From positions 44,739 through 108,738 of the forward strand of contig JAFYPU010000018.1 in NCBI GenBank assembly GCA_017547385.1: 64,000 bases of DNA, in the 5' to 3' direction. The stretch's first letter is position 1, and every line of letters begins with the position of its first letter. Made by a program: the position numbers and the translations under genes. Positions 48,915 to 64,000 of this stretch are shown here, piece after piece. Under the pieces are notes generated by a model. It saw only the letters and a program-made list of their open reading frames with translations, ran no database searches and was not told the DNA's origin. Source of the stretch: Bacteroidaceae bacterium (GTDB lineage Bacteria > Bacteroidota > Bacteroidia > Bacteroidales > Bacteroidaceae).

Positions 48915-48945
48915 TTGGATGAATTTTCAACTTACTATATATTTG
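48915..48945 (+). promoter_or_regulatory. Promoter of the HU gene
   Basis: TTG (48915-48917), 20 nt, then TATATTTG (48938-48945): a strong match to the Bacteroidota consensus, about 48 nt before the start. Confidence 0.7.
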
Positions 48946-48992
48946 CCTCTAAATATGTGATATACATTTTCAAACCCTAATAAAATTTCTCT

Positions 48993-49265
48993 ATGAACAA
49001 GACAGATCTCGTTAATGCCATTGCAGCCGAAGCTCAGCTCAGCAAGGCAGATGCCAAGAAGGCCCTCGACGCAACTCTCAACGCTCTTGCCGGTGCTTTG
49101 AAAGCCGGAGACAAGGTAGCTCTCATCGGTTTCGGTACTTTCGCAGTGAATGAACGTCCTGCTCGCACAGGTATCAATCCTGCTACAAAGGAAAAGATTC
49201 AAATCGAAGCCAAGAAGGTTATCAAGTTCAAGGCCGGTGCAGAATTGGCAGAAGCTGTGAAATAA
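48993..49265 (+). CDS. hup: HU-family DNA-binding protein
   Basis: 90 residues: MNKTDLVNAIAAEAQLSKADAKKALDA helix pair, VALIGFGTFAVNERPARTGINPATKEKI (the DNA-wrapping arm with RPARTGINP), ending KFKAGAELAEAVK. Nucleoid protein that bends DNA. Monocistronic with a strong promoter and terminator. Confidence 0.97.
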   Translation: MNKTDLVNAIAAEAQLSKADAKKALDATLNALAGALKAGDKVALIGFGTFAVNERPARTGINPATKEKIQIEAKKVIKFKAGAELAEAVK

Positions 49266-49278
49266 TTTTGCTTCTCAC

Positions 49279-49322
49279 AAACAACGGCGGCACATGCTCG
49301 AGCATGTGCCGCCGTTTGTTGT
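49279..49322 (+). terminator. Terminator of the HU gene
   Basis: Long stem of about 18 bp (ACGGCGGCACATGCT / AGCATGTGCCGCCGT) followed by TTGTTGT, 15 bp after the stop. Confidence 0.85.
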
Positions 49323-49371
49323 ATATGTTCCGCCCAAGGACGGTGAATCTTGCACGACGAGGACCGACCGA

Positions 49372-50793: not shown

Positions 50794-50839
50794 ATTTATA
50801 TTGTATTGGTAAATTCGTGTTTCGTATCGGAAAGTTTGT

Positions 50840-51742
50840 TTATCCCTCAACCGATTTCTTGTTGCGTGGATGGAAACTCAAAATCTGCTCGCGCAAAAAG
50901 CTACGGTCGATGTGCGTATATATCTCCGTAGTGGTGATACTCTCGTGTCCCAACATGGATTGTATGGCTCGCAAATTGGCACCCCCCTCCAGCAAGTGGG
51001 TGGCAAACGAATGCCTGAACGTGTGTGGGCTGATGGGCTTGGAAATTCCGGCACGCTCGGCATAAATTTTTATCCAGTGAAAAACCGTGATGCGCGACAA
51101 GTGCCGTTTTCTGCGAATGCTGACAAAAACATAATCCTGTTCTTCCGGAGGGATGGGAAGTGCGTTCCGATCGATGAACCACAACTCCAATTCTTTGCAG
51201 GCGCGACTCCCAATGGGCACAAGTCGCTGCTTGCTGCCTTTTCCCTGAACACGGATGTAGCCCTCATCCAATGACAAATCCGACATACGCAATCCGCAAA
51301 GTTCGCTCACACGGAGACCGCAACTATAGAGCACTTCCACAATGGCGCGGTCGCGATGGCCCTCCGGCTGCGACAAGTCGATGGCATCCTCGATGCGATC
51401 GATTTCGCTCACCGAAAGCACTTCGGGCAAGTGTTTCCCTATTTTGGGCGTTTCGAGAAGCTCCGTAGGATCGTTCTCAATGTATCCGTCGAGATGCAGA
51501 AAGCGATAAAAAGAGCGCAATCCCGACAGGATGCGAGCCGTGGAGCGTGCCGAAATTCCCACATCGTGCAGCGACCAGGCAAAACGGTGCAGATGTTCCA
51601 GATTGACGCACTCGGGACGCACGCCCTCCTCATGCAACCAAAGCAGAAAGCGGGTTACGTCGGCCGAATAGGCTTGACGAGTATTCTCCGCCAAACCCCG
51701 TTCAAGCGCAATATGAGCTACGTATCTGTCGAGGAGTTTCAT
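50840..51742 (-). CDS. xerD: Site-specific tyrosine recombinase XerD
   Basis: 300 residues from the ATG at 51742, the normal Xer length. N-terminal SAM-like domain (RYVAHIALERGLAENTRQAY), catalytic residues Arg144 (GLRVSELCGL), Lys in GKGSKQR, His240 and Arg243 (HTFRHSFATHLL), His266 and Tyr275 (LGHESITTTEIYTH). Resolves chromosome dimers at dif. It is in a housekeeping context, not a mobile element, which favours XerC/D over an integrase. Confidence 0.94.
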   Translation of the reverse strand: MKLLDRYVAHIALERGLAENTRQAYSADVTRFLLWLHEEGVRPECVNLEHLHRFAWSLHDVGISARSTARILSGLRSFYRFLHLDGYIENDPTELLETPKIGKHLPEVLSVSEIDRIEDAIDLSQPEGHRDRAIVEVLYSCGLRVSELCGLRMSDLSLDEGYIRVQGKGSKQRLVPIGSRACKELELWFIDRNALPIPPEEQDYVFVSIRRKRHLSRITVFHWIKIYAERAGISKPISPHTFRHSFATHLLEGGANLRAIQSMLGHESITTTEIYTHIDRSFLREQILSFHPRNKKSVEG

Positions 51743-51845
51743 GGATTTTCGGATGCATTCTTTGGATGTTCGGCCGCATAGCTGTAATTTTGGCACGCAA
51801 AGCCGAAGCAAATGTAATGCTTTCGCCAAAATTTGAAACAAGCTT

Positions 51846-52280
51846 ATGAAAATTTTAATCGTAAACGGCCCTAATCTGAACCGCTTGGGCAGTCGCGAAC
51901 CCGGCATCTACGGTCTCACCACCATGGAGGAATGCATGGAGACTTTGCGAGCACGTTTTCCCGAAGTAGAACTGGAATACTATCAAAGCAACGTTGAAGG
52001 TTTTCTCATCGACCGTCTGCAAGCGGCCGAGGGATGCACAGACGGCATTGTGCTGAATGCAGGAGCCTACACGCACACCTCAGTGGCCTTGCACGATGCC
52101 ATACGTTCGCTCAGTGCTCCCGTGGTGGAAGTGCACATCAGCAACGTTCACGGCCGTGAGGAGTTCAGACACCGGAGCCTGATTGCAGCGGCTTGTCAAG
52201 GCGTGATTGCCGGTTTCGGCATGGACTCTTATCGTCTGGGAGTGGAAGCACTGATTTCTCTTCACTCAACAAAAAAATGA
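51846..52280 (+). CDS. aroQ: Type II 3-dehydroquinate dehydratase
   Basis: 144 residues. NGPNLNRLGSREPGIYG, EYYQSNVEGFLIDRLQ, LNAGAYTHTSVALHDAI, EVHISNVHGREEFRHRS: all active-site segments are intact. Third step of the shikimate pathway. Its TGA overlaps the ATG of the methyltransferase gene (ATGA), so the two are translationally coupled. Confidence 0.97.
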   Translation: MKILIVNGPNLNRLGSREPGIYGLTTMEECMETLRARFPEVELEYYQSNVEGFLIDRLQAAEGCTDGIVLNAGAYTHTSVALHDAIRSLSAPVVEVHISNVHGREEFRHRSLIAAACQGVIAGFGMDSYRLGVEALISLHSTKK

Positions 52281-52918
52281 TGCAGGCTTTCGACAATTTG
52301 GAGGAGTATGTGCTGGCGCACATCTCTCCCGAGCACGAATATCTGCACCGCCTCTATCGTGCCACCCACACGCAGTTGCTGCGTCCGCGCATGGCCTCCG
52401 GACATCTGCAAGGCACTCTGCTACGCATGCTCGCCAGTCTCATTCGCCCCAAAAGCGTGTTGGAAATCGGCACCTACTCCGGCTATTCTGCCCTCTGCAT
52501 GGCGGCCGGCATGGAAGCGGACGGAAAAATCCTCACCTTCGAAATCAACGATGAGCAAGAAGACTTTACGCGCCCCTGGTTCGAAGGCTCGCCTTTCCCT
52601 GCGGCCATCGAGATGGTCATCGGTGATGTTTTGGAAATTCTGCCCGGCCGCCCCGATCGCTTCGACATGGCTTTCATCGATGGCAACAAGCGACAATACC
52701 CCGACTACTACCGACTGGTGATGTCGCGCCTCAATGAGGGAGGTTTCATCATCGCAGACAACACCCTGTGGGATGGGCACGTGATTGAGTCCGCCTATGA
52801 CGCAGATGCGCAGACGCAGGGCATCCGAGAGTTCAACGCGATGGTCGCGGCCGACCCCTCGGTGGAAAAAGTCATCCTGCCTTTGCGCGATGGTCTGACC
52901 CTGATACGGAAAATCTGA
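52277..52918 (+). CDS. Family 3 (caffeoyl-CoA type) O-methyltransferase
   Basis: 213 residues from the ATG at 52277. VLEIGTYSGYSALCMAAGM is the SAM loop, followed by FDMAFIDGNKRQYPDYY and GGFIIADNTLWDGHV with the metal-site Asp/Asn residues. Probable cytoplasmic methyltransferase on a catechol-like or nucleic acid hydroxyl; the related E. coli TrmR-type enzymes modify tRNA wobble uridine, which is possible here. Confidence 0.9.
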   Translation: MMQAFDNLEEYVLAHISPEHEYLHRLYRATHTQLLRPRMASGHLQGTLLRMLASLIRPKSVLEIGTYSGYSALCMAAGMEADGKILTFEINDEQEDFTRPWFEGSPFPAAIEMVIGDVLEILPGRPDRFDMAFIDGNKRQYPDYYRLVMSRLNEGGFIIADNTLWDGHVIESAYDADAQTQGIREFNAMVAADPSVEKVILPLRDGLTLIRKI

Positions 52919-52999
52919 CAAGGTTTTCCGTTTTTTTTTGCATCTGCCGGGCGTCTGCAAAGTGTGCAGACCTGGTTTTTCACTATCATTTCATAAGAT

Positions 53000-53076
53000 A
53001 TGATGCGGCTCGGGCAAGTTTTTGGAAATTTCGCAGGCTTATTTCCATACTTCCCGCTTGCCTTTCACTATCTTTG
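53000..53076. repeat. REP-like promoter repeat, copy 4
   Basis: Reverse-orientation copy: ATGATGCGGCTCGGGCAAG...CTTGCCTTTCAC then TATCTTTG (53069-53076), the -7 box of rbfA 25 bp before its start. Matches the 5919 and 41693 units. Confidence 0.7.
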
Positions 53077-53100
53077 CCCCAAAATTATTGAAGCATTTTT

Positions 53101-53436
53101 ATGGAAACTACACGACAACAAAAAATTTCGCGCCTCATACAGAAAGAACTCAGCGACATCTTTCAGCGTCAGACACAGGCTTTGCACGGTGTGCTCGTGA
53201 GTGTGAGCACAGTCCGTATCAGTCCGGACCTCAGCATCTGCCGTGCTTATCTCAGCGTGTTCCCTTCCGAACGCGCCACAGAGATTTTGGAAAACATCAA
53301 CAACAATGCGCGCGAGGTGAGATATGAATTGGGAACGCGCGTAAGGCATCAGTTGCGCATCATTCCCGAGTTGAAATTTTTCGTCGACGACTCGTTGGAC
53401 TACATCGAGCACATTGACGAACTTCTCTCCCGATAG
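53101..53436 (+). CDS. rbfA: 30S ribosome-binding factor A
   Basis: 111 residues: TRQQKISRLIQKELSDIFQRQ start, VSVSTVRISPDLSICRAYLSVFP core and ELKFFVDDSLDYIEHIDELL end. KH-domain factor for late 30S maturation. Followed 48 bp downstream by the lolE-like gene, a pairing common in Bacteroidota. Confidence 0.94.
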   Translation: METTRQQKISRLIQKELSDIFQRQTQALHGVLVSVSTVRISPDLSICRAYLSVFPSERATEILENINNNAREVRYELGTRVRHQLRIIPELKFFVDDSLDYIEHIDELLSR

Positions 53437-53484
53437 TCTGGCGTTGACCGAACCATCCGCAAAAACACGCAAGCCTCTCATGGT

Positions 53485-54705
53485 ATGAATTTCCCCCTTT
53501 TCGTTGCTCGCCGATACCTTTTCTCAAAAAAGAGCCACAATGCCATCAATTTCATCTCCGCTATATCCGTTGGCGGAGTGGCTTTGGCCACGTTGGCAAT
53601 GGTCTGCACGCTTTCTGTCTTCAATGGATTTCGCGACCTCATCGGTTCGCTCTACACGGCCTTTGACCCCGAATTGCAGGTAGTGCCGGCCAAAGGAAAA
53701 TTCATGCAAGCCGGAGCACAAGGCCTGGGCGTGGCACGCTCACACCCCGAGGTGGAAGCGGCTTCAGCCTGTTTGGAAGACCATGCGATGCTTCTGTTTG
53801 CCGGCCGCCCCGTGGTGATTACGCTCAAAGGGGTTGACGAGAATTTCGAAAAGAGCACCGGCATTCGCAGCATCCTTTATGGCGAAGGCAACTTCGTCCT
53901 AAGTGCCGCCGGTGTGGAATACGGCGTGCCGGGCATCGGTCTGGCGAGCCACATGGGCGGTGTGGATTACGGTTCACTGCAAGTGTGCGCACCGCGACGC
54001 GGCGAACAACTGAACATGACCAACCCGGGGGCTAACTTCAACGCCGGCGAACTGTTCTCACCCGGTGTGGTGTTCAGCGTGAGCCAACGAAAATACGACG
54101 AAAACTATCTGCTTTCGTCGCTCTCCTTTGCACAAAACCTGTTTGAGCAACCGGGACACATTTCGTCGCTCGAACTGAAACTCAAACCAGGTGCCGACAC
54201 CGACAAAGTGAAAGCCGATTTGCGCCAACGTTTGGGCAAGGACTACCGAGTGCTCGACCAGGCGGAGCAGCAGGAGGAGGTGTTCGGCATCATGGCCATC
54301 GAAAAACTCATTGCCTATTTCTTTCTTACCTTCATCGTGTTGGTGGCTTGCTTCAACATCATCGGCTCGGTATCGATGCTAATCATAGACAAGCGCGACG
54401 ATGTGGCGACCTTGCGCACCCTGGGTGCAAACGACCGTCTCATTGTCAGGATTTTCCTGTTCGAGGGGCGGTTTATCTCCGTGCTGGGTGCCATCATCGG
54501 TGTGGTGTTGGGACTGCTATTGTGTTGGGCGCAGCAAACTTTCGGTCTGTTGCGGCTCGGCGAGTCCTCGGGCAATTTCATCATCGAAGCCTACCCCGTC
54601 AGCGTGCATTGGCAGGACGTGTTGGCCGTGTTCGCCACCGTCATCGCGGTTGGTTTCCTCTCCGTTTGGTATCCCGTTCATTATCTCAGCAAACGATTGC
54701 TCTGA
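53485..54705 (+). CDS. LolC/LolE-type ABC transporter permease
   Basis: 406 residues. MacB/FtsX fold: N-terminal helix (INFISAISVGGVALATLAMVCTLSVFNGFRDL), periplasmic domain with FDPELQVVPAKGKF, then three C-terminal helices (IAYFFLTFIVLVACFNIIGSVSMLIID, FISVLGAIIGVVLGLLLCW, VLAVFATVIAVGFLSVWYP). Related proteins move lipoproteins from the inner membrane to LolA. The LolD ATPase is not next to it. Confidence 0.88.
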   Translation: MNFPLFVARRYLFSKKSHNAINFISAISVGGVALATLAMVCTLSVFNGFRDLIGSLYTAFDPELQVVPAKGKFMQAGAQGLGVARSHPEVEAASACLEDHAMLLFAGRPVVITLKGVDENFEKSTGIRSILYGEGNFVLSAAGVEYGVPGIGLASHMGGVDYGSLQVCAPRRGEQLNMTNPGANFNAGELFSPGVVFSVSQRKYDENYLLSSLSFAQNLFEQPGHISSLELKLKPGADTDKVKADLRQRLGKDYRVLDQAEQQEEVFGIMAIEKLIAYFFLTFIVLVACFNIIGSVSMLIIDKRDDVATLRTLGANDRLIVRIFLFEGRFISVLGAIIGVVLGLLLCWAQQTFGLLRLGESSGNFIIEAYPVSVHWQDVLAVFATVIAVGFLSVWYPVHYLSKRLL

Positions 54706-54775
54706 CGCGCACAAACTATCACCGTTTTCCTGACACTTTGTCGGAAAACTCCCCCTCTTGAAGCGCAAAAATTCA

Positions 54776-54836
54776 CAAGGCGTTTAGAATTTTCCGCAAG
54801 CACTGCGAAAAATTCTAAACGCCTTGCAGATTTTCC
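54776..54836. repeat. 21-bp periodic hairpin array, 3 units
   Basis: CAAGGCGTTTAGAATT (54776-54791) and its perfect inverse (54811-54826) flank a GCAAGCACTGCG centre, same family as 24307 and 45580. Between lolE and ansA. May also work as a processed hairpin in a read-through transcript. Confidence 0.85.
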
Positions 54837-54941
54837 CCCAAAACCATGCCCAAAGCCACGCCCTGACCGAAAGGCAGGGACAATGCATCTGCGAAATGCG
54901 GCATACGGGGTGGAAATCGCTGATATATATGAAAAAATACG

Positions 54942-54949
54942 TACTTTTG
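54942..54949 (+). promoter_or_regulatory. Possible promoter of ansA
   Basis: TACTTTTG only 17 nt before the ATG; -33 box weak. It would give a very short leader. Confidence 0.4.
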
Positions 54950-54965
54950 CATCAAAATAATTGTG

Positions 54966-56021
54966 ATGCCTTCCATACTTATCATCTACACAGGCGGAAC
55001 CATCGGCATGATTGAAAATCCCGAGACGGGAGCACTCGAGAATTTTGACCTTGAGCAATTCCGCCGCCAGGTTCCCGAACTGAAACGTTTCAACTACAAC
55101 ATCGATGCGTTGGCATTCGGTCCGCCCATCGATTCGAGCGACATGGAACCGAGCTACTGGGTCAAGATGGTGCGCCTCATCGCTGACAATTATCACCAAT
55201 ACGACGGATTTGTTTTGTTGCACGGAACCGACACCATGGCCTACACAGCATCGGCCCTCAGTTTTATGCTCGAAAATCTCAGCAAGCCGGTCATCATCAC
55301 CGGTTCGCAACTCCCCATCGGCCAGTTGCGCACCGACGGAAAGGAAAACCTGCTCTCGTCCATCGAGATTGCTGCCGCAAAAGACGCAAACGGACGCCCC
55401 ATGGTGCCCGAGGTGTGCATCTATTTCGACAACCAATTGCTACGAGGCAACCGTACGACCAAAATCAATTCGGAAGGCTTCAACGCTTTCCGTTCACACA
55501 ATCTGCCGGCTTTGGCACAGGCAGGCATTCACATTTTCTACGAGACGCATCTCATCCGCCGCCCTGCGCCCGAAGCCAAATTCAAGCCGCATTTTCTGAT
55601 GGACGACAATGTGGTAATCCTCACCCTATTCCCGGGAATACGCAAAGAGGTGGTGGACATCATCCTGCACATCAAAGGTCTGAAAGCCGTCATCCTGAAA
55701 ACCTATGGTTCGGGCAACGCTCCGCAGGCCTCATGGCTGTACGAACGCCTTGAGGAACTGCATCGACGCGGTGTGATTGTGGTGAACATCACCCAATGTT
55801 CAAAAGGACGCGTGGAGATGGGACGCTACGAAACAAGCCTCCAACTGCTCGATGCCGGCGTTATCAACGGACACGACTGCACCTTGGAATGCGTGGTTAC
55901 GAAGCTGATGTTCCTGCTCGGCCACGGCTATTCGCGAGAGCACATCACAAAATTGATGAGCACCAACATTGCCGGCGAGGTAACCATTCCCGAGGAGGAC
56001 GAAACACTGTCAGCATCCTGA
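54966..56021 (+). CDS. ansA: Type I (cytoplasmic) asparaginase
   Basis: 351 residues from the ATG at 54966 (the GTG at 54963 adds one residue). IIYTGGTIGMIEN holds the nucleophilic Thr, and LLHGTDTMAYTASALSFMLENL the second catalytic Thr-Asp. No signal peptide, so cytoplasmic. Converts asparagine to aspartate and ammonia. The ABC importer genes follow after 10 bp, so they may share the transcript. Confidence 0.95.
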   Translation: MPSILIIYTGGTIGMIENPETGALENFDLEQFRRQVPELKRFNYNIDALAFGPPIDSSDMEPSYWVKMVRLIADNYHQYDGFVLLHGTDTMAYTASALSFMLENLSKPVIITGSQLPIGQLRTDGKENLLSSIEIAAAKDANGRPMVPEVCIYFDNQLLRGNRTTKINSEGFNAFRSHNLPALAQAGIHIFYETHLIRRPAPEAKFKPHFLMDDNVVILTLFPGIRKEVVDIILHIKGLKAVILKTYGSGNAPQASWLYERLEELHRRGVIVVNITQCSKGRVEMGRYETSLQLLDAGVINGHDCTLECVVTKLMFLLGHGYSREHITKLMSTNIAGEVTIPEEDETLSAS

Positions 56022-56031
56022 GCTTGAGGCC

Positions 56032-57162
56032 ATGAAATTCCGTCTGCCACTCACCCTTCTTTCCCTACTCTTCCTGCTGCTCTCTGTGGCCGGTTGCGGA
56101 CATGCACCTCTGATGTCCGAAACCGGAGGCGACACTTTGACTTTTCGCCATGCCACACTGTTGCACATCGAACGCACCGACAGTTACACCATTGCCGAGG
56201 TGCGCGATGCATGGCGCAAGGACAAAGTGCTTCACCGCTATGTGCTCGTTCCACGTCGCGCCAAAGTGCCCGCACACCTACCCTTCGGAACCGTGCTCCG
56301 CACACCGCTGCGTCGGGTCATCGTGGGCACTTCCGTGCATGCGGCTTTGCTGACCGAGCTTGGCCGTCAAGGCAACATCTGCGGCCTTTGCGACACAGCC
56401 TATCTGCAACACAAGGAGCTGCGCAAAGCCTTGAAAGACGGATACATTGCCGACATGGGTTCGTCCATGCAACCCGTGGTGGAACGCGTCATATCTGCCG
56501 ATGCCGACGCGCTGTTTCTCTCCTCCTTCGAGAACGCCGGACACGGCATCATCGCACAGGCCGGCATCCCTATAGTGGAATGCATCGACTACATGGAACG
56601 CTCACCCTTGGGCCGTGCCGAATGGATGCGCTTCTTCGGACTCCTGATGGGTTGCGAAGCCGAGGCCGACTCGATGTTCGCAGGAGTGGAACGCCGATAC
56701 GAGCAACTGCGCCACCACATCCAATCGGCAAAAACGCTCCCCACACTGATGTGCGACCGCAAGGAGGGCGCACTCTGGTATGTGCCGGGGGCAGAAAGCA
56801 CCATGGGACAGCTGTACGCCGATGCTGGAGCCGCTTATCTGTTCTCCCACCTCAAAGGCAGCGGCTCGCTCCCCCTGTCGTTTGAAACGGTCTACAACCA
56901 AGCCCGCGAGGCCGACGTGTGGTTGCTGAAGTATGGCGCCGCCACCGACATCACATACCAAAGTTTGCAAGCCGATTTCCCGCCTTACAAAGGTTTTCGG
57001 CCGTGGCGCGAAAAGCACATCTACGGTTGCAACACGTTTCGCACACCTTTCTATGAGGAGGTGCCGTTTCGCCCCGACCTTTTGCTGTCCGACATAGCAG
57101 CCATTCTGCATCCCGAATTGCTGTCCGGACACACTCTCCGTTATTTCCAACCTCTGAAATAA
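56032..57162 (+). CDS. ABC importer substrate-binding lipoprotein (siderophore/cobamide type)
   Basis: 376 residues. Lipobox SVAGC (Cys22). Class III binding-protein fold: RRVIVGTSVHAALLTELG, ADMGSSMQPVVERVISADADALFLSSFENAG, VECIDYMERSPLGRAEWMRFFGLLMGCEAEAD. These motifs match BtuF/FecB-like proteins of Bacteroidota. Ligand could be an iron complex, heme or a cobamide; I cannot decide. Precedes the matching permease by 26 bp. Confidence 0.88.
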   Translation: MKFRLPLTLLSLLFLLLSVAGCGHAPLMSETGGDTLTFRHATLLHIERTDSYTIAEVRDAWRKDKVLHRYVLVPRRAKVPAHLPFGTVLRTPLRRVIVGTSVHAALLTELGRQGNICGLCDTAYLQHKELRKALKDGYIADMGSSMQPVVERVISADADALFLSSFENAGHGIIAQAGIPIVECIDYMERSPLGRAEWMRFFGLLMGCEAEADSMFAGVERRYEQLRHHIQSAKTLPTLMCDRKEGALWYVPGAESTMGQLYADAGAAYLFSHLKGSGSLPLSFETVYNQAREADVWLLKYGAATDITYQSLQADFPPYKGFRPWREKHIYGCNTFRTPFYEEVPFRPDLLLSDIAAILHPELLSGHTLRYFQPLK

Positions 57163-57188
57163 GCCACTACACATTTCCCCCTCCCCTT

Positions 57189-58205
57189 ATGCTGCGCCGT
57201 CATTCCCTGCTCTTTTCATTCGTCGTGCTGCTGCTGTTGGCAGTTGCCGGACTCCTGTTGGGCAGCGTGCATCTGGCACCGGCCGACGTGCTGACGGCCC
57301 TGTTCGATACGGCCGAGGCAGACCCCTCGACGGCGTTCATCGTTTGGCAAAGCCGTTTGCCGCAAGTGTGCACCGCACTCCTGTCGGGCGCAGCACTGGC
57401 CGTGAGCGGCCTGCTCATGCAGACACTTTTTGCCAACCCACTGGCCGACCCCGGCATTCTGGGCGTGAACTCGGGAGCGGCATTGGGCGTGGCCCTCGTC
57501 ATGTTGCTGATGGGCGGCAGTGCAGAGGCCGGAGGCTTCGTGCTGTCGGGCTATCTGCTCACCATTCTGGCGGCTCTGGCCGGTGCTTGTGCCGTAACGC
57601 TGCTGCTCTTGGCATGTTCGGCCCTGCTACGCGGAAAACTCATGCTCCTCATCACGGGTGTCATGGTGAGCTACGTGGTGAGTTCGGCCATATCGCTGCT
57701 GAATTTCTATGCCACGGAGCAGGGCGTGCAGAGCTACATCATTTGGGGAATGGGCAACTTCGGCGGTGTCAACTTGGAGCGACTTCCGGCCTATGCCCTC
57801 ACGATATTTGCAGGCCTGACGGGGACGATGCTGCTTTGCAAGCCGCTCAATGCCTTGTTGCTGGGCGATAATTATGCCGGCAATCTGGGTGTTCGTGTCC
57901 GCCGGATGCGTTTTTGGGTGCTGCTGCTGGCAAGTTGGCTGACGGCTGCCGTTACGGCACTGTGCGGCCCCATCGCTTTTGTGGGGCTGGCCGTTCCTCA
58001 CGCAGCACGGCTCCTGATTTCTACCTCCGACCACCGACGGCTGCTGCCGCTCACCGCTTTGTGGGGAGCCAACACAGCCCTGCTCTGCCTGCTGATTACG
58101 TACTTGCCCGGCGAGCGCGGTGTGCTGCCCATCAATGCCCTGACACCCGTCATCGGCGTGCCGGTGGTGATGTATATATTATTGAAAGGACGAAAAGGCG
58201 CATAG
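57189..58205 (+). CDS. FecCD/BtuC-type ABC permease
   Basis: 338 residues, about ten membrane helices. Family signatures: SRLPQVCTALLSGAALAVSGLLMQTLFANPLADPGILGVNSGAALG near the N-terminus (the LPxxLxAxLxGxxLaxsG pattern), GNLGVRVRRMRF, and CGPIAFVGLAVPHAARLL. Translocates the ligand bound by the preceding lipoprotein. The ATPase expected next is absent: tcdA follows instead. Confidence 0.92.
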   Translation: MLRRHSLLFSFVVLLLLAVAGLLLGSVHLAPADVLTALFDTAEADPSTAFIVWQSRLPQVCTALLSGAALAVSGLLMQTLFANPLADPGILGVNSGAALGVALVMLLMGGSAEAGGFVLSGYLLTILAALAGACAVTLLLLACSALLRGKLMLLITGVMVSYVVSSAISLLNFYATEQGVQSYIIWGMGNFGGVNLERLPAYALTIFAGLTGTMLLCKPLNALLLGDNYAGNLGVRVRRMRFWVLLLASWLTAAVTALCGPIAFVGLAVPHAARLLISTSDHRRLLPLTALWGANTALLCLLITYLPGERGVLPINALTPVIGVPVVMYILLKGRKGA

Positions 58206-58253
58206 CTATTTTATACCCCCGTTCTTGTTTTTGAAATATCAACGTTGAAAAAT

Positions 58254-59027
58254 ATGGAAGCATTGCATCAACGCACCGAACTGCTGCTCGGCACTCCCAC
58301 TATGGAGGCGCTGAAATCGACCCGCGTCATCCTGTTCGGCGTGGGCGGTGTGGGCGGTTGGTGTGCCGAGAGCCTCATTCGCTCGGGCATCGGCCATCTC
58401 ACCATCGTCGATTCCGACACCGTGAACCCCACCAACCTGAATCGCCAACTCGTGGCCACGACGCAGACCGTGGGACGCGCCAAGGTGGAGGTGCTTCGCG
58501 AACGCCTGCTCTCCATCAACCCCGAAGCCGAAATCGTGGCGCATCATGCGCTCTACACACCGGAAAACGCCGACTCCTATGCGCTCGCTTCTTATCACTA
58601 CGTGGTCGATGCCATCGACAGTCTGGAAAACAAGGCGCACCTGCTGCTGACGGCTACCGGCACACCGGCCATTGTCGTGTCGAGCATGGGAGCTGCGCTG
58701 AAGATGGACCCGACGCGCATCAGCGTGGCTGAGTTTTGGAAAGTGCGTGGCTGTCCGCTGGCAGCCGCTTTGCGCCGCCGTTTCAAGCGCGACGGAGCAC
58801 GCCTGCGCCGCAAGATAAAGTGCGTCTACAGCGAAGAACTGCTTGCGAATGCCGGCACAGTGTCGGGCGACGAAGCCCCCGAAGTGCACGGTGGCAGTGT
58901 GAAAGCACGCACCAATGGCACAGTGGCCCATGCCGTAGCCATTTTCGGCTTCACGCTGGCCGGACTGGTGGTGCAGGACATTTGGAAAAAAGCAACAGCT
59001 TCGCAAGAAGGACAGAACACCCCGTAG
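58254..59027 (+). CDS. tcdA: tRNA threonylcarbamoyladenosine dehydratase (TcdA/CsdL, ThiF/E1-like)
   Basis: 257 residues from the ATG at 58254 (the in-frame TTG at 58245 is a weaker start). Adenylation motifs GVGGVGGWCAESLIRSGIG, DSDTVNPTNLNRQL and VVDAIDSLENKAHLL, then KMDPTRISVAEFWKVRGCPLA and VKCVYSEEL-like sequence (IKCVYSEELL). It cyclises t6A37 to ct6A in tRNA using ATP. An independent gene with a strong terminator. Confidence 0.92.
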   Translation: MEALHQRTELLLGTPTMEALKSTRVILFGVGGVGGWCAESLIRSGIGHLTIVDSDTVNPTNLNRQLVATTQTVGRAKVEVLRERLLSINPEAEIVAHHALYTPENADSYALASYHYVVDAIDSLENKAHLLLTATGTPAIVVSSMGAALKMDPTRISVAEFWKVRGCPLAAALRRRFKRDGARLRRKIKCVYSEELLANAGTVSGDEAPEVHGGSVKARTNGTVAHAVAIFGFTLAGLVVQDIWKKATASQEGQNTP

Positions 59028-59054
59028 CACCGGCTGCAAGGCTCTGAGCTCCCC

Positions 59055-59107
59055 TGCAAAGTGCGCATACCGACGGAAGAACGCCTTGTCGGTATGCGCA
59101 CTTTGCA
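59055..59107 (+). terminator. Terminator-like hairpin after tcdA
   Basis: Perfect 20-bp inverted repeat (59055-59074 against 59088-59107) with a 13-nt loop. No clear T-run follows (TTGAAAAC), so it may stabilise mRNA 3' ends or stop transcription less efficiently. Confidence 0.65.
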
Positions 59108-59181
59108 TTGAAAACATTCCGTTGCCCGCGAAAAGAAATCAGAAAGCACACCAAACCTTTTCACAAGCCACATAAACTTCT

Positions 59182-59349
59182 TCAGCGTGCTCAAAAACTA
59201 TATCTCACGACGTGAGATGAATATTGCACGCCTTGCAATATTTATTTCACGCCGTGCAATATATATTGCACGGCGTGAAATATAGTTTATAAGCACTGCC
59301 GGCAACTTTTCAAGCACAGCAGATAACTTTTGAAACACGCTTTTGCATT
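59182..59349. repeat. 21-bp periodic palindromic array, 8 units
   Basis: Eight consecutive 21-bp units start at 59182, 59203, 59224, 59245, 59266, 59287, 59308 and 59329. Units 2-5 have a CACG..GTG-type core, and units 4-5 together form a perfect 40-bp palindrome (59243-59282). Units 6-7 share AAGCAC with the 24307-type arrays. Lies between convergent tcdA and the topoisomerase gene. Confidence 0.85.
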
Positions 59350-59359
59350 TTCGGAGCAG

Positions 59360-59408
59360 CAAAAAAAGGGCGGAAGCACGTGAACAGATGTTCACCATGC
59401 TTCCGCCG
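59360..59408 (-). terminator. Terminator of the topoisomerase IV subunit A gene
   Basis: Stem of about 16 bp with one bulge (GCGGAAGCA.GTGAAC / GTTCAC..TGCTTCCGC) followed on the minus strand by seven T; 27 bp after the stop. Confidence 0.88.
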
Positions 59409-59434
59409 CTATTTGATAAGCGTCCGTGTTATTT

Positions 59435-62122
59435 TCAGAACAAGCGCTGCTGCCCCAGGATGGCATCGTGCACTTCGCTTTCGCTCTCCTGCTCTTCAGG
59501 GTCGGGTGCATCGGTTTCTTCCGGCTCTTCGGCTTCCTCCGGTTGGGGTTCGGGTTCGGGGAAACGCGTCGGTTCAAGTTCCACAATGCTTTCCACCGCA
59601 CACGTCGTGAGACGCTTGCCCTTGGCCTTGAAGCTCTTGACGCCGATGAACTGCTCCACATCTACCTCCATCGGCTCGCGGAACGCATCCGCGCCGCCAT
59701 AGTTCACCACGATGCGGGGATAGACCTGCTGCGTGAGGAGCACGAACTGCGAAGCGGGATTTTCGCCCATGAAATTGAGGTGGCGCGAACCGGCCGTGCG
59801 CTCGAAACAGAAGCGCTTAGCATACGGGAAGCCCTGCTGGTCAGCATCGAAAAGCACCGCGCTCCACACCTTTGCCTCGTCGAACTTCTCGATGAGCAGA
59901 ATGTTGTTCTCGTAGTGATTGTTCGCATCGAAGTTGGTAGTGTAGAAGTCGCCGTTTTTCAGCACCACAAGCACGAGGTCGTCGCTATGGAACTCGCCGA
60001 GATACTGGCCGCGCTCGTCATAATTGAGACGCTGCACATCGTGGTCAAACCACACTTTGCGGCCGCCCAACGTGGAAGCACCGTGTGCCTTGAGCGTGAT
60101 GCGATGCACGTCGAGCTTTGTGAGCAAATTGCCACGCGACTGGCGTCCCTTCACCATGATTTCGCTGAAATCGCGGTCGAAGAAAATCTTTTTCAGCTTG
60201 GGTTGCGGCTTCAGCGTAACCTTGATGATTTCGGCCTCACCGTTGGGATTGGCAGTGAAATAGCAGACGCGGCTTCCCGGCTCGCCGGTGGTGAGATCGT
60301 ACTCGCGGTCGTGAGTGATGGAAGTTACGTTGAAACGTTTGATGAAGTAGCTTCCGGCTTTGCCGTCGCGATACACGGCATTGTAGATGGTGCGCTTGTC
60401 GTTCTTCTTGAATACGGCAATGTGCATCACCTCGGCCTTGCGTTTCTCCTTACGGCTCCGCTCCGTCTCGCCTATAAATACCTTATCCGCCACGCGAGTT
60501 ACCTTGTAAGTACCATCGCGATAGAAAATTATGACATCGTCGATGGGCGAACAGTTCTCGACAAATTCGTCCTTCTTAAGGCCTGTGCCGATGAACCCTT
60601 CCTGTCGGTTGATATACAACTTCTCGTTCGCTTCAATCACCTTGGTAGCCTCGATGGTGTCGAACGAACGCAATTCTGTGAGACGTGGGTGGGCGGCAGC
60701 GTACTTCTCGCGGATGAGTTTGTACCAGTTGGCCGTAACTTCCACCATATTGGCCAAATCTTTCTCAATCTGTTCTATCTCCGCCTTGATGCGAGCAATG
60801 AGTTCGTCAGCCTTATCCTTATTAAACTTAAGAATGCGGGCCATTCTTATTTCCATGAGGCGGAGAATGTCGTCCTTGGTAACCTCGCGCACCATTTGGG
60901 GATAGAAAGGTGTGAGACGCTCGTCGATGTGCTCGCAAGCCGCATCCATATTTTTAGCGTTCTCGAACTGACGGTCCTTATAGATTCGCTCTTCTATGAA
61001 TATCTTTTCAAGCGAAGCGAAGTGCAGGCTCTCCATCAGCTCTCCCCTGCGGATTTCCAGTTCGCGCTTGAGCAGCTCCTTGGTGTGGTCCACCGAACGT
61101 CGGAGCACGTCGCTCACCGTCAGGAAGCAAGGTTTGTTGTCGTCAATAACACAGCAGTTGGGCGAGATGCTCACTTCGCAATCCGTGAAAGCATAGAGGG
61201 CATCGATAGCCTTGTCGGAAGAAGTTCCGGGAGTGAGATGAATGGGTATCTCCACCTTGGCCGCAGTGATGTCGTCCACACGGCGGATTTTTATCTTGCC
61301 TTTTTCATTGGCCTTGAGGATGCTCTCGATGAGCGACGAGACGGTCTTGCCAAACGGAATCTCGGTTATGACAAGCGTCTTGCTATCACGCTTTTCGATT
61401 TTCGCACGCACTTTCACCGTTCCCCCACGCATACCATCGTTGTAGCGCGACACGTCGATGGAGCCGCCGGTCTGGAAGTCGGGATACAGATGAAACTCTT
61501 CGCCGTGCAAATATTGGATGGCGGCATCGCATATCTCGCCGAGGTTGTGCGGCAGAATCTTTGCCGACAAGCCCACGGCAATTCCCTCTGCGCCTTGCGC
61601 CAACAACAGTGGGAACTTCACGGGCAGTGCAATGGGCTCTTTGTTTCGTCCGTCGTAGGAGAGTTTCCACTCCGTTGTTTTGGGATTGAACAGCACATCG
61701 AGGGCAAATTTCGAGAGTCGGGCTTCGATGTATCGCGGTGCAGCGGCGCGGTCGCCGGTCAGTATGTTACCCCAGTTGCCTTGGCAGTCGATGAGCAGAT
61801 CCTTCTGTCCAAGCTGCACAAGCGCGTCGCCGATGGATGCATCTCCGTGGGGGTGAAATTGCATCGTGTGTCCCACGATGTTGGCCACCTTGTTATAGCG
61901 TCCGTCATCGAGACGCTTCATCGAGTGCAGGATGCGGCGTTGCACGGGTTTGAGACCGTCGCCCAGATGCGGCACGGCGCGTTCCAAAATAACATAGGAG
62001 GCATAATCCAGAAACCAGTTACGATACATCCCGGAGAGTTGGTGTGTCGTGTCGTCGTGTTTCTGTTCTTGCGGTGTGTAGGACGAATGCGCTTCCTGCA
62101 GTTCGATGTTCTCTTCGCTCAT
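59435..62122 (-). CDS. parC: DNA topoisomerase IV subunit A
   Basis: 895 residues from the ATG at 62122. The upstream in-frame TTG at 62170 would add 16 residues and is less likely. DNA-gate motifs: YASYVILERAVPHLGDGLKPVQRRIL, HPHGDASIGDALVQLGQ, and the catalytic Tyr131 in APRYIEARLS. The beta-pinwheel C-terminal domain follows, with a highly acidic tail (PEPEPQPEEAEEPEE). The Bacteroidota-type length and the lack of a GyrA box I can find point to ParC; the partner parE is not in the window. Decatenates chromosomes. Confidence 0.92.
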   Translation of the reverse strand: MSEENIELQEAHSSYTPQEQKHDDTTHQLSGMYRNWFLDYASYVILERAVPHLGDGLKPVQRRILHSMKRLDDGRYNKVANIVGHTMQFHPHGDASIGDALVQLGQKDLLIDCQGNWGNILTGDRAAAPRYIEARLSKFALDVLFNPKTTEWKLSYDGRNKEPIALPVKFPLLLAQGAEGIAVGLSAKILPHNLGEICDAAIQYLHGEEFHLYPDFQTGGSIDVSRYNDGMRGGTVKVRAKIEKRDSKTLVITEIPFGKTVSSLIESILKANEKGKIKIRRVDDITAAKVEIPIHLTPGTSSDKAIDALYAFTDCEVSISPNCCVIDDNKPCFLTVSDVLRRSVDHTKELLKRELEIRRGELMESLHFASLEKIFIEERIYKDRQFENAKNMDAACEHIDERLTPFYPQMVREVTKDDILRLMEIRMARILKFNKDKADELIARIKAEIEQIEKDLANMVEVTANWYKLIREKYAAAHPRLTELRSFDTIEATKVIEANEKLYINRQEGFIGTGLKKDEFVENCSPIDDVIIFYRDGTYKVTRVADKVFIGETERSRKEKRKAEVMHIAVFKKNDKRTIYNAVYRDGKAGSYFIKRFNVTSITHDREYDLTTGEPGSRVCYFTANPNGEAEIIKVTLKPQPKLKKIFFDRDFSEIMVKGRQSRGNLLTKLDVHRITLKAHGASTLGGRKVWFDHDVQRLNYDERGQYLGEFHSDDLVLVVLKNGDFYTTNFDANNHYENNILLIEKFDEAKVWSAVLFDADQQGFPYAKRFCFERTAGSRHLNFMGENPASQFVLLTQQVYPRIVVNYGGADAFREPMEVDVEQFIGVKSFKAKGKRLTTCAVESIVELEPTRFPEPEPQPEEAEEPEETDAPDPEEQESESEVHDAILGQQRLF

Positions 62123-62189
62123 GTGAGTATTTCTTGCAAAGGGGTTAAAGGTTTTCACGGGGCTTGACAACTTTTCTGCCCGAATGAGG

Positions 62190-62197
62190 CAAAATTA
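62190..62197 (-). promoter_or_regulatory. Possible promoter of parC
   Basis: Minus-strand TAATTTTG fits TAnnTTTG; no clear -33 box. About 68 nt before the ATG. Confidence 0.4.
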
Positions 62198-62262
62198 CGA
62201 AAAAAAGCCGAGCAGCCTCGGCGTGTCTTCGAAAAAATCCCTATCTTCGCGCCATGATTTTC

Positions 62263-62344
62263 GCGCGTGTGGCGAAATTGGTAGACGCGCCAGACTTAGG
62301 ATCTGGTGTCGCGAGACGTGTAGGTTCGAGTCCTATCACGCGCA
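62263..62344 (+). tRNA. tRNA-Leu (anticodon UAG)
   Basis: Acceptor stem GCGCGTG / CACGCGC, discriminator A, anticodon stem CCAGA/TCTGG with loop CTTAGGA (anticodon TAG), long class II variable arm and GGTTCGAGTCC T-arm. CCA is not encoded. Possible promoter TATCTTCG at 62242. AT-rich foreign-looking DNA begins right after its 3' end. Confidence 0.93.
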
Positions 62345-62352
62345 CAATGGGA

Positions 62353-62397
62353 CAAAAGAGGAATTTTCGAGAGAATTTTTCTCTTTTCTATTTTTAT
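62353..62397 (+). terminator. Terminator of tRNA-Leu
   Basis: Stem AAAAGAG / CTCTTTT with inner AATTTTC pairing, then CTATTTTT. Nothing recognisable in 62398-62586 apart from a small AT palindrome at 62548. Confidence 0.5.
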
Positions 62398-62586
62398 AAT
62401 TTACACCTGCTCATTGCCATATAGGTTGCGGTGCAAACGGACAGCAACTGCCATGAAAGAAAATTTCTTCTCTCTCGCTTGTTTGTGGCGTCTTTGCTTA
62501 TCGCAATGTAATTAACCTACTTCTTTCAAGGGTTGCCACCTCATATTATTACATATATATGTAATAGAGGATTTTACCTACCTCAT

Positions 62587-63294
62587 TCAAAAAATCTGTT
62601 TTAGCACTATTTTGGGGTAGGTTGTTTCGAAACATGGCAAACATATATTTATTTTTTTGAAAAACAAATTTAGAGGACTAAATTTTTTAATTTTTCTTAG
62701 GGTATTCACGCTCGTAGATGTGATAGCAGATACATTACGAAGCGATAAACCTTTGCGCAAAAGTTGGATTTCTTTTGCATATTCGCTCCGCATCGCTTCC
62801 TCACTCTTGCGATAGCCCTCTTTACGAACAACCTTGCCACCAATCGCTCTGTAATGGTTATAACCACTCTCCATACGACTTCTGATGAGGCTACGCTCCA
62901 TACTGTTAAACTGTGCAAGAATACCCATAACCAACTGTGCAATAGGGTTGGGCTGGCCATTGGGGAGCAGTGTTTCAAGACCATTTTGGAGTATATACAC
63001 GCTGATTTTCTTTGCTGTAAGATTTTCTATTACAGTAAGGAAATCTAATGCACGCCTCGATAAGCGACTGCACTCATAGATAAGCACCTTATCCACCTTG
63101 TTGCTCTCAACGAATGAAAGCAACTCTGTAAGGGCTTGGCGTTCTGCTACTGTTTTTGCTCCACTGACCTTTTCACAGAACTCCATTACGACCTCGTATT
63201 CCATCTTACGAGCGTACTCACGCAACTCTGCCAACTGTCGCTCATAGTCTTGTCCTTGAGTGCTTACACGAGCGTATATAACTACCTTTGCCAT
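62587..63294 (-). CDS. Serine recombinase (resolvase/invertase family)
   Basis: 235 residues from MAKVVIYARVS at 63294. N-terminal catalytic domain: nucleophile Ser11 in YARVSTQGQDYERQL, KVLIYECSRLSRRALDFL, and the E-helix region FNSMERSLIRSRMESGYNHYRA. A C-terminal helix-turn-helix follows (GLSLRNVSAITSTSVNTLRKI). The last 30 residues are hydrophobic and unusual, perhaps where the frame was fused to AT-rich sequence. Lies next to tRNA-Leu in AT-rich DNA with codon use unlike the rest of the window. DUF2693 gene 13 bp upstream, same strand. Confidence 0.9.
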   Translation of the reverse strand: MAKVVIYARVSTQGQDYERQLAELREYARKMEYEVVMEFCEKVSGAKTVAERQALTELLSFVESNKVDKVLIYECSRLSRRALDFLTVIENLTAKKISVYILQNGLETLLPNGQPNPIAQLVMGILAQFNSMERSLIRSRMESGYNHYRAIGGKVVRKEGYRKSEEAMRSEYAKEIQLLRKGLSLRNVSAITSTSVNTLRKIKKFSPLNLFFKKINICLPCFETTYPKIVLKQIF

Positions 63295-63307
63295 ACTCCT
63301 ACTACTA

Positions 63308-63679
63308 TTAAAGAACCTCAATAAGATTTTCAAAACGAAGTGAACGAAATCCACCCTTTTCACAATCCCAATAGCAGACAGTGTTCACGCTATCCCTTGA
63401 AATGCCTCTGCCATTGATGTTTGCTTTCATAAGGTTGCTTGATGTTGTACCCCACGCCTCACGAAGCGTGCCATCTTTCTTCATATATACGAAGTGAGCA
63501 ACACCCATCTGCAACTTTGCTTTGAGCAAGTCAATCATCTGTGCCTTGATTACGCCCATCGCCTCGCTGTTGGTTCTATGAGCGATTACGCTGGCTCTAC
63601 GACTTGTAAGATTATTTATTACAACAACTGAATTATTTGCTACTGCTATCATATCTGTATTGGTTAAGTGGTTAAACAT
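63308..63679 (-). CDS. DUF2693-like mobile-element protein
   Basis: 123 residues from the ATG at 63679. GVAHFVYMKKDGTLREAWGTTSSNL and CYWDCEKGGFRSLRFENLIEVL are the features I associate with DUF2693, a small protein common in Bacteroidota plasmids, conjugative elements and phages; function unknown. A promoter-like TATCTTTG and a purine-rich AAAGGAAAT lie just upstream. The in-frame TTG at 63778 is not used as start for this reason. Same operon as the serine recombinase. Confidence 0.75.
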   Translation of the reverse strand: MFNHLTNTDMIAVANNSVVVINNLTSRRASVIAHRTNSEAMGVIKAQMIDLLKAKLQMGVAHFVYMKKDGTLREAWGTTSSNLMKANINGRGISRDSVNTVCYWDCEKGGFRSLRFENLIEVL

Positions 63680-63809
63680 ATCTTTATTTCCTTTTTGCGA
63701 TACAAAGATATGGAATATGTTTAATATATTCAAATAAAATGCAATAAAATTATGGAGTATTTTGATTATTTTCCACAAATATTTAATTTTGCCTTAAATT
63801 GAGTAATTT

Positions 63810-64000
63810 ATGGAAGCAAACAAACAAGAACGAACAGTAATACACCTAGAGTTAAATGGAGAGCATCATTATTTTGGTAGTGTAAAAGCATTGTGTGACA
63901 ATTTTAGCAAAGAACAAATAGGAATTGGATATAAAAGTCTTGCCAACTATGGAATAACATCAGAGAAACCATACAGGAACAAATATTGCACTGTTAGAAA
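63810..64000 (+). CDS. Partial protein of unknown function (3' end outside window)
   Basis: 63 codons visible: MEANKQERTVIHLELNGEHHYFG onward, with KSLANYGIT. AT-rich, typical of mobile DNA. I do not recognise it; the arrangement (short strand, GSVKALCDNF, KSLANYGI) looks like a small DNA-binding or phage-type accessory protein, but this is a guess. A TAATTTTG box lies at 63784. It diverges from the DUF2693 gene. Confidence 0.6.
   Translation, partial: MEANKQERTVIHLELNGEHHYFGSVKALCDNFSKEQIGIGYKSLANYGITSEKPYRNKYCTVR

What the first reader, a model, noticed from the sequence alone, without database searches (positions are those of the whole stretch)
59182..59349. A recurrent class of intergenic arrays made of 21-bp degenerate palindromic units
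Seen directly: intergenic stretches at nine places in 64 kb have exact 21-bp periodicity (6118, 24307, 32818, 41947, 45580, about 48590, 54776, 59182) or 22-bp periodicity (14108). Within an array units are similar; between arrays the units differ, though several share an AAGCACTGC core. Most units are palindromic. 21 bp is two helical turns and also seven codons, so translations show heptad patterns that could be misannotated as genes. I know of no named element matching this. Possible roles: phased sites for a nucleoid or regulatory protein, a roadblock between genes, or slippage-grown debris.
Basis: partly seen in the sequence, partly recalled or inferred. Interest (0 to 1): 0.75.

Follow-up and report, generated by a model that had tools for sequence, protein, structure and literature searches.

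The report
Palindrome arrays phasing a chromosome-wide lattice
In two related bacteria, small palindromic repeat arrays lie between genes about every 6,000 to 10,000 bases and mark the centres of a faint 21-base rhythm of A/T runs that continues through the neighbouring genes, which suggests a built-in code for folding the chromosome.

Summary
Observation confirmed and enlarged. In 464 kb of this genome, noncoding self-similarity occurs at lag 21 (36 regions) and 22 (6), and in 1 region at all other lags 12-40. Arrays are palindromic modules of several families, mostly with fixed module number (A, B, C; D and E vary). Family A is at most one per intergenic region, keeps its position between sibling species (17 both, 8 one only, 41 neither), and swaps or flips whole 5-bp centre words. 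Spacing is regular in G000 (6.0 +/- 2.3 kb) but not on the largest G008 contig.

Unexpected: A/T tracts follow a 21.15-bp, two-turn lattice in coding DNA of both species (2.6-fold modulation near arrays) and in array-free intergenic DNA. It is phase-locked to arrays and gone by about 3 kb; synonymous shuffling removes most of the coding periodicity. Non-A arrays lock too; random centres do not.

Best reading: arrays are phase-setting seeds of a chromosome-wide structural code, perhaps for a DNA-wrapping protein. Lattice computed; protein inferred. REP/RAYT and RNA-hairpin readings fit poorly; gyrase is unresolved.

The parts
6108..6186 (.). array, family A (3 modules, GAGCACTGC words)
14092..14199 (.). 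array, family C: four 22-bp modules TTATCATGCGCATGATAA; the one array of nine in the window without an in-phase flank (ratio 0.96)
24297..24370 (.). array, family A (AAGGCGTTT / AAGCACTGC / AAACGCCTT modules)
32812..32881 (.). array, family B: three modules AGTGGC-N-GCCACT; no array seen at the orthologous G008 site
   Evidence: (#3)
41936..42005 (.). array, family A; word 2 inverted in the sibling ortholog
   Evidence: (#4)
45571..45645 (.). array, family A; present at the orthologous site in G008
48661..48740 (.). array, family A, within a larger dispersed repeat; partial copy at 48576-48611
54766..54840 (.). array, family A; present at the orthologous site in G008
59182..59349 (.). array, family D (the finding given): four ATATTGCA-N5-TGCAATAT-like modules flanked by AAGCACTGC/AACTTTTC modules on the same 21-bp pitch; orthologous array present in G008
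   Evidence: #5
1..64000 (.). 21.15-bp A/T-tract lattice (measured on G000 and G008 pieces that include the window); 8 of 9 arrays in the window have 1.4-2.2 times more tract at in-phase than out-of-phase positions 110-2000 bp away

Best explanation
The arrays are the phase-setting centres of a chromosome-wide structural code. Each is a small set of palindromic modules on a two-helical-turn pitch; in family A it presents A/T tracts on one face of the DNA. From each array an A/T-tract lattice of period 21.15 bp runs both ways through intergenic and coding DNA, largely by synonymous codon choice, and fades between 2 and 3 kb, near half the array spacing in G000. I infer that an architectural protein (or a wrapped or curved DNA fold) grips the minor groove at every second turn, is seeded at the arrays and spreads outward until it loses register or meets the structure from the next array. 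Shown by computation: pitch, positional conservation, regular spacing in G000, lattice, phase lock to arrays, dependence on synonymous codons. Inferred: the protein, the spreading, the meeting of domains, and the function (folding or topological domains of about 5-10 kb).
For: Period-specific arrays. At most one family-A element per intergenic region (0 doublets; 14-15 expected). Spacing CV pooled over four G000 pieces 0.34 against 0.70-0.81 in five nulls, 0 of 1000 each; P 0.0013 and 0.002 on the two large pieces against a null that forbids gaps under 2.2 kb. Non-A arrays lie farther from A than chance (P 0.015, n=15). Positions conserved (17/7/1/41, Fisher P 2e-9). A/T tracts between words are AnTm: 1 of 154 has a TpA step, 33 expected. 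A/T autocorrelation in coding DNA peaks at 21, 42, 63, 85, 106, 127 and on to 211, with lows at half periods, in both species; whole-contig coherence to about 2 kb. Phase lock to the family-A dyad in coding DNA alone: z -9.8, -11.3, -7.5, -6.3, -3.7, -2.3, -1.0, -0.6 in windows from 110 bp to 3.6 kb; tract density 0.035 to 0.090 by phase. One set of random centres gave nothing. Six synonymous shuffles per species cut coding peak-trough from 35 to 2-5 (G000) and from 25 to -0.5-6 (G008).
Against: No protein was identified. Spacing is not regular over the 420 kb of G008 contig C9 (CV 0.80 vs 0.87, P 0.27; gaps to 37 kb), and counting a further repeat did not rescue it (P 0.18). A reset of the lattice at the nearest array is not established: at matched distances of 1-2.5 kb the lock per window is about as strong when another array is nearer (z -2.3, -3.4, -1.6 with n 26, 71, 134) as when it is not (-9.0, -6.5, -4.0 with n 547, 504, 440); only at 2.5-3 kb do they differ (+1.3, n 227, vs -2.5, n 344), so the fading may be loss of register. 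Phase lock survives synonymous shuffling in part (z -3.8 to -4.9 nearest, -1.0 to -4.8 from there to 2.2 kb, three shuffles), so amino-acid choice contributes. Array-free intergenic DNA also has a 10.5-bp component (G000 7.7 vs 15.1 at 21; G008 7.6 vs 7.8). Non-A arrays give an unexplained z of +3.2 at 4.05-4.47 kb. The family-C array of the window shows no in-phase flank. In two other species the lock could not be decided (3-4 loci each); pooled congener coding DNA is nearly flat. Families C, D and E lack clean AnTm tracts by eye. All tests were post hoc, on two draft genomes with a home-made gene caller.
Confidence: 0.55

Rival explanations
1. Mutational footprint. A protein structure anchored at the arrays exists, but the lattice is not selected: it builds up because bound and exposed DNA mutate differently at every second turn.
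For: The modulation is present in coding DNA at large and partly at amino-acid level, as a mutational bias would give; the phase lock falls smoothly with distance.
Against: Family-A cores keep discrete words and AnTm tracts (272 of 279 centres in six words), which looks like constraint or homogenisation; a pure bias does not explain conserved array positions.
Confidence: 0.15
2. Intrinsic DNA fold without a dedicated protein: phased A/T tracts curve the DNA and place the arrays at apices of supercoiled loops or at topoisomerase (gyrase) sites.
For: AnTm tracts without TpA, with weaker phased tract peaks over about 270 bp around the core; about 130-bp near-symmetric element, the length of the E. 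coli gyrase motif (PMC6379681, passages); in the left outer flank of the element the G+C rhythm at 10.75 bp exceeds that at 21 (0.049 vs 0.036) and on the right they are equal (0.038 each).
Against: Over the whole element the G+C rhythm is stronger at 21 than at 10.5 bp (0.090 vs 0.059), unlike the 10.75-bp gyrase motif. No excess of family A in convergent regions (8 of 94 vs 13.7% expected). Families C, D and E lack clean A-tracts by eye.
Confidence: 0.14
3. Selfish REP/REPIN-like miniature repeats; spacing arises because close copies are lost or avoided, with no architectural role.
For: Dispersed palindromes, intergenic, species-specific sequences; family A never twice in one region.
Against: No REP tag seen by eye; the single Y1 transposase gene found in G000 is an isolated insertion with its own hairpins and no array within its 3.3-kb locus. 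A mobile repeat does not explain a lattice in the neighbouring genes nor cross-family avoidance.
Confidence: 0.1
4. RNA-level element: tandem hairpins acting as terminators or 3'-end stabilisers.
For: Family B modules are GC-rich hairpins, several close to gene ends; family A in codirectional regions is nearer stops than starts.
Against: For family A, G-U does not exceed A-C on the sense strand (78 vs 97); it sits in divergent regions as often as length predicts (31 of 94); no Rfam match on any array of the window. Family B was not tested apart.
Confidence: 0.04

Closest known systems
DNA-curvature-related A-tract periodicity of prokaryotic chromosomes (PMC3431218, PMC4132750; start of abstract and passages seen)
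   Same: Genome-wide phased A/T tracts, in coding and noncoding DNA, tied to helical pitch
   Different: Known period about 10-11 bp; here 21.15 bp in coding DNA with lows at half periods, phase-locked to discrete intergenic elements. Array-free intergenic DNA shows both rhythms. The term '21 bp' occurs in none of the 7 papers listed
REP / BIME / REPIN repeats with RAYT, including tagged CGTC REPs with 8-9 bp stems and 4-5 nt loops (PMC3733652, PMC8049555; passages seen)
   Same: Dispersed intergenic palindromes, species-specific sequences; CGTC REPs have a similar stem and loop size
   Different: Head-to-tail arrays on a 21/22-bp pitch, no tag seen, no linked transposase found, regular spacing in G000 and a flanking lattice
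E. coli gyrase motif and BIME-2 gyrase sites (PMC6379681; passages seen)
   Same: About 130 bp, symmetric, phased A/T, intergenic (BIME-2)
   Different: 10.75-bp rhythm there; over the element here 21 bp is stronger, in the outer flanks it is not; enzyme binding untested
SegB chromosome-organising sites of archaea (PMC12284271; passages seen)
   Same: Palindromic sites scattered over the chromosome with a role in chromosome organisation
   Different: Single 13-bp motif, mostly inside genes; no periodic array or lattice in the passages seen
Phased nucleosome arrays around barrier elements in eukaryotes (recalled, no call)
   Same: A fixed site sets the phase of a repeating DNA-protein structure that decays with distance
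   Different: 21-bp sequence rhythm instead of nucleosome repeats; bacterial; no protein known

Membership tests
REP/REPIN-RAYT | linked RAYT (Y1) gene flanked by the repeats | tested here: not met
   One Y1_Tnp gene found in G000; a roughly 590-bp insertion missing from the syntenic G008 site, no array within its 3.3-kb locus. Y1 in 10 of 15 congeners searched and not found in G040 (99% complete), G030 and G002, which have lag-21 arrays. Flanks of the Y1 genes of the other species were not fetched
REP (GTAG/CGTC superfamilies) | unpaired GTAG or CGTC tag at the foot of each palindrome | tested here: not met
   Read by eye from units: modules abut directly (TGCAGAAA|TTTCTGCA); no tag. No automated tag scan was made
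10-11 bp A-tract periodicity, coding DNA | autocorrelation peaks at about 10.5 and 31.5 as well as 21 | tested here: not met
   G000 coding: lags 21/42/63 = .022/.030/.033; 31/52 = -.003/-.011; spectrum 7.5 at 21 vs 1.6 at 10.5; G008 coding 5.6 vs 1.8
10-11 bp A-tract periodicity, intergenic DNA | autocorrelation component at about 10.5 bp | tested here: inconclusive
   Array-free intergenic DNA: G000 7.7 at 10.5 vs 15.1 at 21; G008 7.6 vs 7.8; congeners pooled (arrays not removed) 7.1 vs 5.5
Gyrase site | 10.75-bp GC rhythm flanking a cleavage centre | tested here: inconclusive
   Whole element 0.090 at 21 vs 0.059 at 10.5; left outer flank 0.036 at 21 vs 0.049 at 10.75; right 0.038 each
Gyrase site | gyrase cleavage in vivo | not testable with these tools
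   needs Topo-Seq
Tandem repeats grown by slippage | variable copy number among copies | tested here: inconclusive
   By eye: family A nearly always 3 modules, B 3, C 4; 4 in the 4 fetched G036 loci, 5 in 3 distinct G010 arrays. But family E differs by 44 bp between G000 and G008 (#15/16) and family D has a copy with 5 modules (L044)
Known structured RNA (Rfam 15) | score above the gathering cut-off | tested here: not met
   Only FopS at 24512-24577 and a tRNA in the window
Phage or plasmid sequence | related copies in phages or plasmids | tested here: not met
   One 75-bp family-A query: no match in 72,556 plasmid and 50,697 phage records; 0 of 18 viral contigs with the core pattern have the family-A linker. 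Other families not searched

The most novel reading that the evidence does not exclude
A bacterial chromatin code: the whole chromosome carries a two-turn (21.15-bp) A/T lattice, written even into synonymous codons, that is organised into roughly 5-10 kb domains, each phased by one intergenic palindromic seed; different species use unrelated seed sequences for the same geometry.
Probability: 0.45. Interest if true: 0.97.

Novelty: categorically new. Interest (0 to 1): 0.91.

Why it matters
If true, chromosome folding in these bacteria is encoded in the sequence at the level of helical turns and reaches into codon choice, much as nucleosome positioning does in eukaryotes, and discrete intergenic elements set its phase. 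It would suggest where bacterial chromosome domains are centred, give a use for a class of repeats that would otherwise be filed as REP-like debris, and make the old question of what A-tract periodicity is for directly testable, because phase centres can be deleted one at a time.

Tried and rejected
REP/RAYT mobilisation: single unlinked Y1 gene. RNA hairpins: for family A, G-U 78 vs A-C 97 on the sense strand, little arm covariation beyond consensus. Gyrase: the rhythm test was mixed, so left open. Phage, plasmid or viral origin: no match or no family-A linker. The AAGCACTGC word as a general Bacteroidia motif: the two-word pattern is absent from the 60 other genomes of the family sample and the 79 others of the class sample; several database hits with it are coding repeats. 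Counting the 85-bp repeats as further centres did not make G008 regular and made G000 slightly less regular (one of its queries contained an array). Lag-21 hits in other families of the class are 4 of 5 simple repeats by eye. Phase lock in G036 and G010: too few loci to decide. A lattice reset at the nearest array: not shown below 2.5 kb. Literature for a described element: (open-access library only). On re-checking I lowered the best explanation from 0.60 to 0.55 and the novel case from 0.50 to 0.45, and raised the intrinsic-fold/gyrase rival from 0.10 to 0.14 and the RNA rival from 0.03 to 0.04, because the reset test and the gyrase-rhythm test were weaker than I had first written.

Full report
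What was checked. The window is 64 kb of a 2.35-Mb genome assembly (G000, 34 contigs, 86.5% complete). I took 400 kb more of G000 and masked genes with a home-made hexamer gene caller. Noncoding regions with at least 30 of 42 bases repeated number 36 at lag 21, 6 at lag 22, 1 at lag 18 and 0 at all other lags from 12 to 40.

Anatomy. The arrays fall into families. Family A is about 130 bp: three modules of the form TTTCTGCA-AGCAC-TGCAGAAA (8+5+8 = 21), with near-symmetric flanks. The 5-bp centres come from a tiny vocabulary: 272 of 279 are AGCAC, AGGCG, CGGCG or their reverse complements, and centres are rarely palindromic (3 and 2 of 93 complementary at the two innermost pairs of module 2). 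Tracts between words are AnTm: 1 of 154 contains TpA, against 33 expected from column shuffles. Family B has three GTGGCA-N5-TGCCAC modules, C four 22-bp TTATCATGCGCATGATAA modules, D four or five ATATTGCA-N5-TGCAATAT-like modules, E GACACTGCAGTGTC units. Families A, B and D share centre words by eye. There are 59 family-A hits of 20 bits or more in the 464 kb of G000 and 36 in 500 kb of G008; about 300 per G000 genome is my extrapolation. A single-query search scored 40 of 225 candidates and found 40 A places in the whole genome. Module number is nearly constant in A, B and C by eye, but a family-E array differs by 44 bp between G000 and G008 (#15/16), and two G008 family-A arrays carry an extra segment inside (#8 and #14).

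Distribution. Family A is never found twice in one intergenic region: 94 hits in 697 regions, 0 doublets, 14-15 expected, minimum 6 in 2000 simulations. With all families, 118 occupied regions hold one array and 1 holds two. A follows intergenic length (8 convergent, 31 divergent, 55 codirectional; expected 13.7, 30.8 and 55.5%), its midpoint stays at least 93 bp from start codons in divergent regions, and lies nearer stops than starts in codirectional ones (113 vs 231 bp, medians). Counting all families, 74 arrays in four G000 pieces are 6.0 kb apart with SD 2.3 kb, range 1.7-11.0 kb; pooled CV is 0.34 against 0.70-0.81 in five null models, 0 of 1000 each. On the two large pieces a null that forbids gaps under 2.2 kb still leaves P 0.0013 and 0.002. 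Non-A arrays sit farther from A arrays than chance (5.8 vs 4.6 kb, P 0.015, n = 15), so families may be interchangeable. Against this, G008 contig C9 is not regular (40 arrays, CV 0.80 vs 0.87, P 0.27, gaps to 37 kb, mean 10 kb) and adding the 85-bp repeats did not make it so (P 0.18); G008 contig C8 (8 arrays) is (P 0.029).

Evolution. Of 41 noncoding G000 arrays (A and others), 24 had some and 23 both flanking genes in fetched G008; 22 could be aligned, and in several of these the array is absent or the region unalignable in G008 (for instance #3, #6, #13, #20, #22, #26). Among 66 syntenic intergenic regions of 150 bp or more in either species, A is in both in 17, only G000 in 7, only G008 in 1, neither in 41 (Fisher P 2e-9). 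Of 48 orthologous modules (16 of the 17 pairs; one failed the ungapped filter), 26 keep the centre, 11 have it inverted, 8 have another word, 3 are other. So position and geometry are often kept while the words are exchanged whole.

Other species. In 827 kb from 39 congeners (4 of which gave only withheld letters), noncoding arrays number 10 at lag 21, 6 at 22, 0 at 19 and 20, 1 at 23; 13-, 16-, 26- and 39-bp lags give 5, 5, 4 and 3. Their sequences are by eye mostly unrelated to family A (L210 shares an AGAATTTTCT tract). G036 has its own family, four GTTACAAACTTTGTAAC modules with phased T-tracts on one side, found in 1 of 58 genomes of the genus; G010 has a five-module 22-bp family, in 1 of 5 genomes searched. 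In 20 other genera of the family: 1 at lag 21, 5 at lag 22, 3 at all other lags from 12 to 40.

The lattice. The surprise came from testing the flanks. Around family-A cores A/T tracts stay phased at 21 bp to about 200 bp each side in noncoding DNA (amplitude 0.036 and 0.044, null maxima 0.017 and 0.023). Autocorrelation of A/T tracts in coding DNA peaks at 21, 42, 63, 85, 106, 127 and on to 211, with lows at half periods, in both species; array-free intergenic DNA has peaks at multiples of 21 too, but with a 10.5-bp component that is half as strong in G000 (7.7 vs 15.1) and equal in G008 (7.6 vs 7.8). The best period is 21.1-21.2 in coding DNA of both and in G000 intergenic DNA (21.5 in G008), not a multiple of three. 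Shuffling synonymous codons within genes, six times each, cuts the coding signal from 35 to 2-5 (G000) and from 25 to -0.5-6 (G008), so protein sequence is not the main cause. Coherence lasts: whole-contig amplitude in G000 is 13 at lags 15-226, 6.7 near 1 kb, 3.6 near 1.8 kb, 0.7 at 3 kb, noise 0.2-0.9.

Phase lock. With period 21.15 (chosen as the best of nine tried) the lattice keeps a fixed phase to the family-A dyad. In coding DNA alone z is -9.8, -11.3, -7.5, -6.3, -3.7, -2.3, -1.0, -0.6 in windows from 110 bp to 3.6 kb; G000 and G008 each show it; W content and AA/TT dinucleotides show it as well; three synonymous shuffles weaken it to -3.8 to -4.9 in the nearest window and -1.0 to -4.8 from there to 2.2 kb. 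Tract density in coding DNA 110-1300 bp away varies from 0.035 to 0.090 with phase. One set of random centres gives nothing. Non-A arrays are locked to their own core phase (z 4.4, 3.2, 3.8, 2.7 in windows to 0.9 kb at period 21.1, the first touching the edge of longer arrays; an unexplained +3.2 at 4.05-4.47 kb). Whether the lattice is reset at each array is open: at 1-2.5 kb the lock to an array is per window about as strong when another array is nearer; only at 2.5-3 kb does it differ (-2.5, n 344, when nearest; +1.3, n 227, when not). The fading may be a domain edge or gradual loss of register. In the window 8 of 9 arrays show in-phase excess of 1.4 to 2.2; the 22-bp family-C array does not (0.96).

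Interpretation. Sequence-free geometry, dyad symmetry, orientation-free centres, seemingly interchangeable families, spacing about twice the coherence length in G000, and a lattice in phase with the arrays fit seeds for a repeating DNA-protein structure that contacts DNA every second helical turn. That protein is inferred, not found. The lattice may be selected or may be a mutational footprint of such a structure; both need the structure. REP/RAYT and RNA-hairpin readings were tested and fit poorly; a gyrase or intrinsic-curvature reading is open, because the G+C rhythm is 21 bp over the element but 10.75 bp or mixed in its outer flanks. In papers, a 10-11 bp A-tract rhythm is well known (PMC3431218, PMC4132750, passages); '21 bp' occurs in none of the seven papers. 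The paper library is open-access only, so absence from print is not proved.

Limits. Two draft genomes, tests chosen after looking, home-made gene calls, no experiment. Whether other species share the lattice is open: 5 of 58 sampled genomes exceed four times background at 19-23.5 bp in 15-100 kb (G036 among them), with no formal null, while 20 of 20 G000 20-kb pieces peak at 21.0-21.3; pooled congener coding DNA is nearly flat.

Noticed in passing
24512-24577 (-): Rfam FopS sRNA (RF04319, 75.9 bits) some 150 bp from the 24.3-kb array; FopS is a Bacteroides sRNA family reported to repress SusC-like transporters (PMC11697453, passages).
   Followed up: partly
41690-41853 and 48163-48376: Dispersed repeats with an 85-bp tandem unit, close to four lattice periods (4 x 21.15 = 84.6); many copies in G008, often beside family-A arrays (where one query contained an array).
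   Followed up: partly
48243-48685: Synteny between G000 and G008 is inverted with a breakpoint in or near the dispersed repeat here.
   Followed up: no
L134 1258-1844: About 590-bp insertion with a Y1 transposase gene and its own terminal hairpins, absent from the syntenic G008 site.
   Followed up: partly
L119 6950-7017: Contig labelled Ruminococcus sp. RGIG4258 (roe deer colon) holds a family-A array: probably a misbinned contig of this lineage.
   Followed up: no
L094 4603-5086: Prevotellaceae Mx356_bin45 has long 21-bp arrays using GCAGTGCTT and GGCGTTT words.
   Followed up: no
L042 12540-12836, L216 7095-7481: Paired, oppositely oriented 13-bp repeat arrays (GCTACCACCAAAC-like) in congener G037, bounded by a CATTAGAG / CTCTAATG motif.
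   Followed up: no
L019 7331-7440 and its G008 ortholog (#21): Family-C array and surrounding bases are 99% identical between species whose orthologous genes have a median identity of 85%; the flanking genes there are also unusually close (92 and 98%): recent exchange or strong constraint.
   Followed up: no
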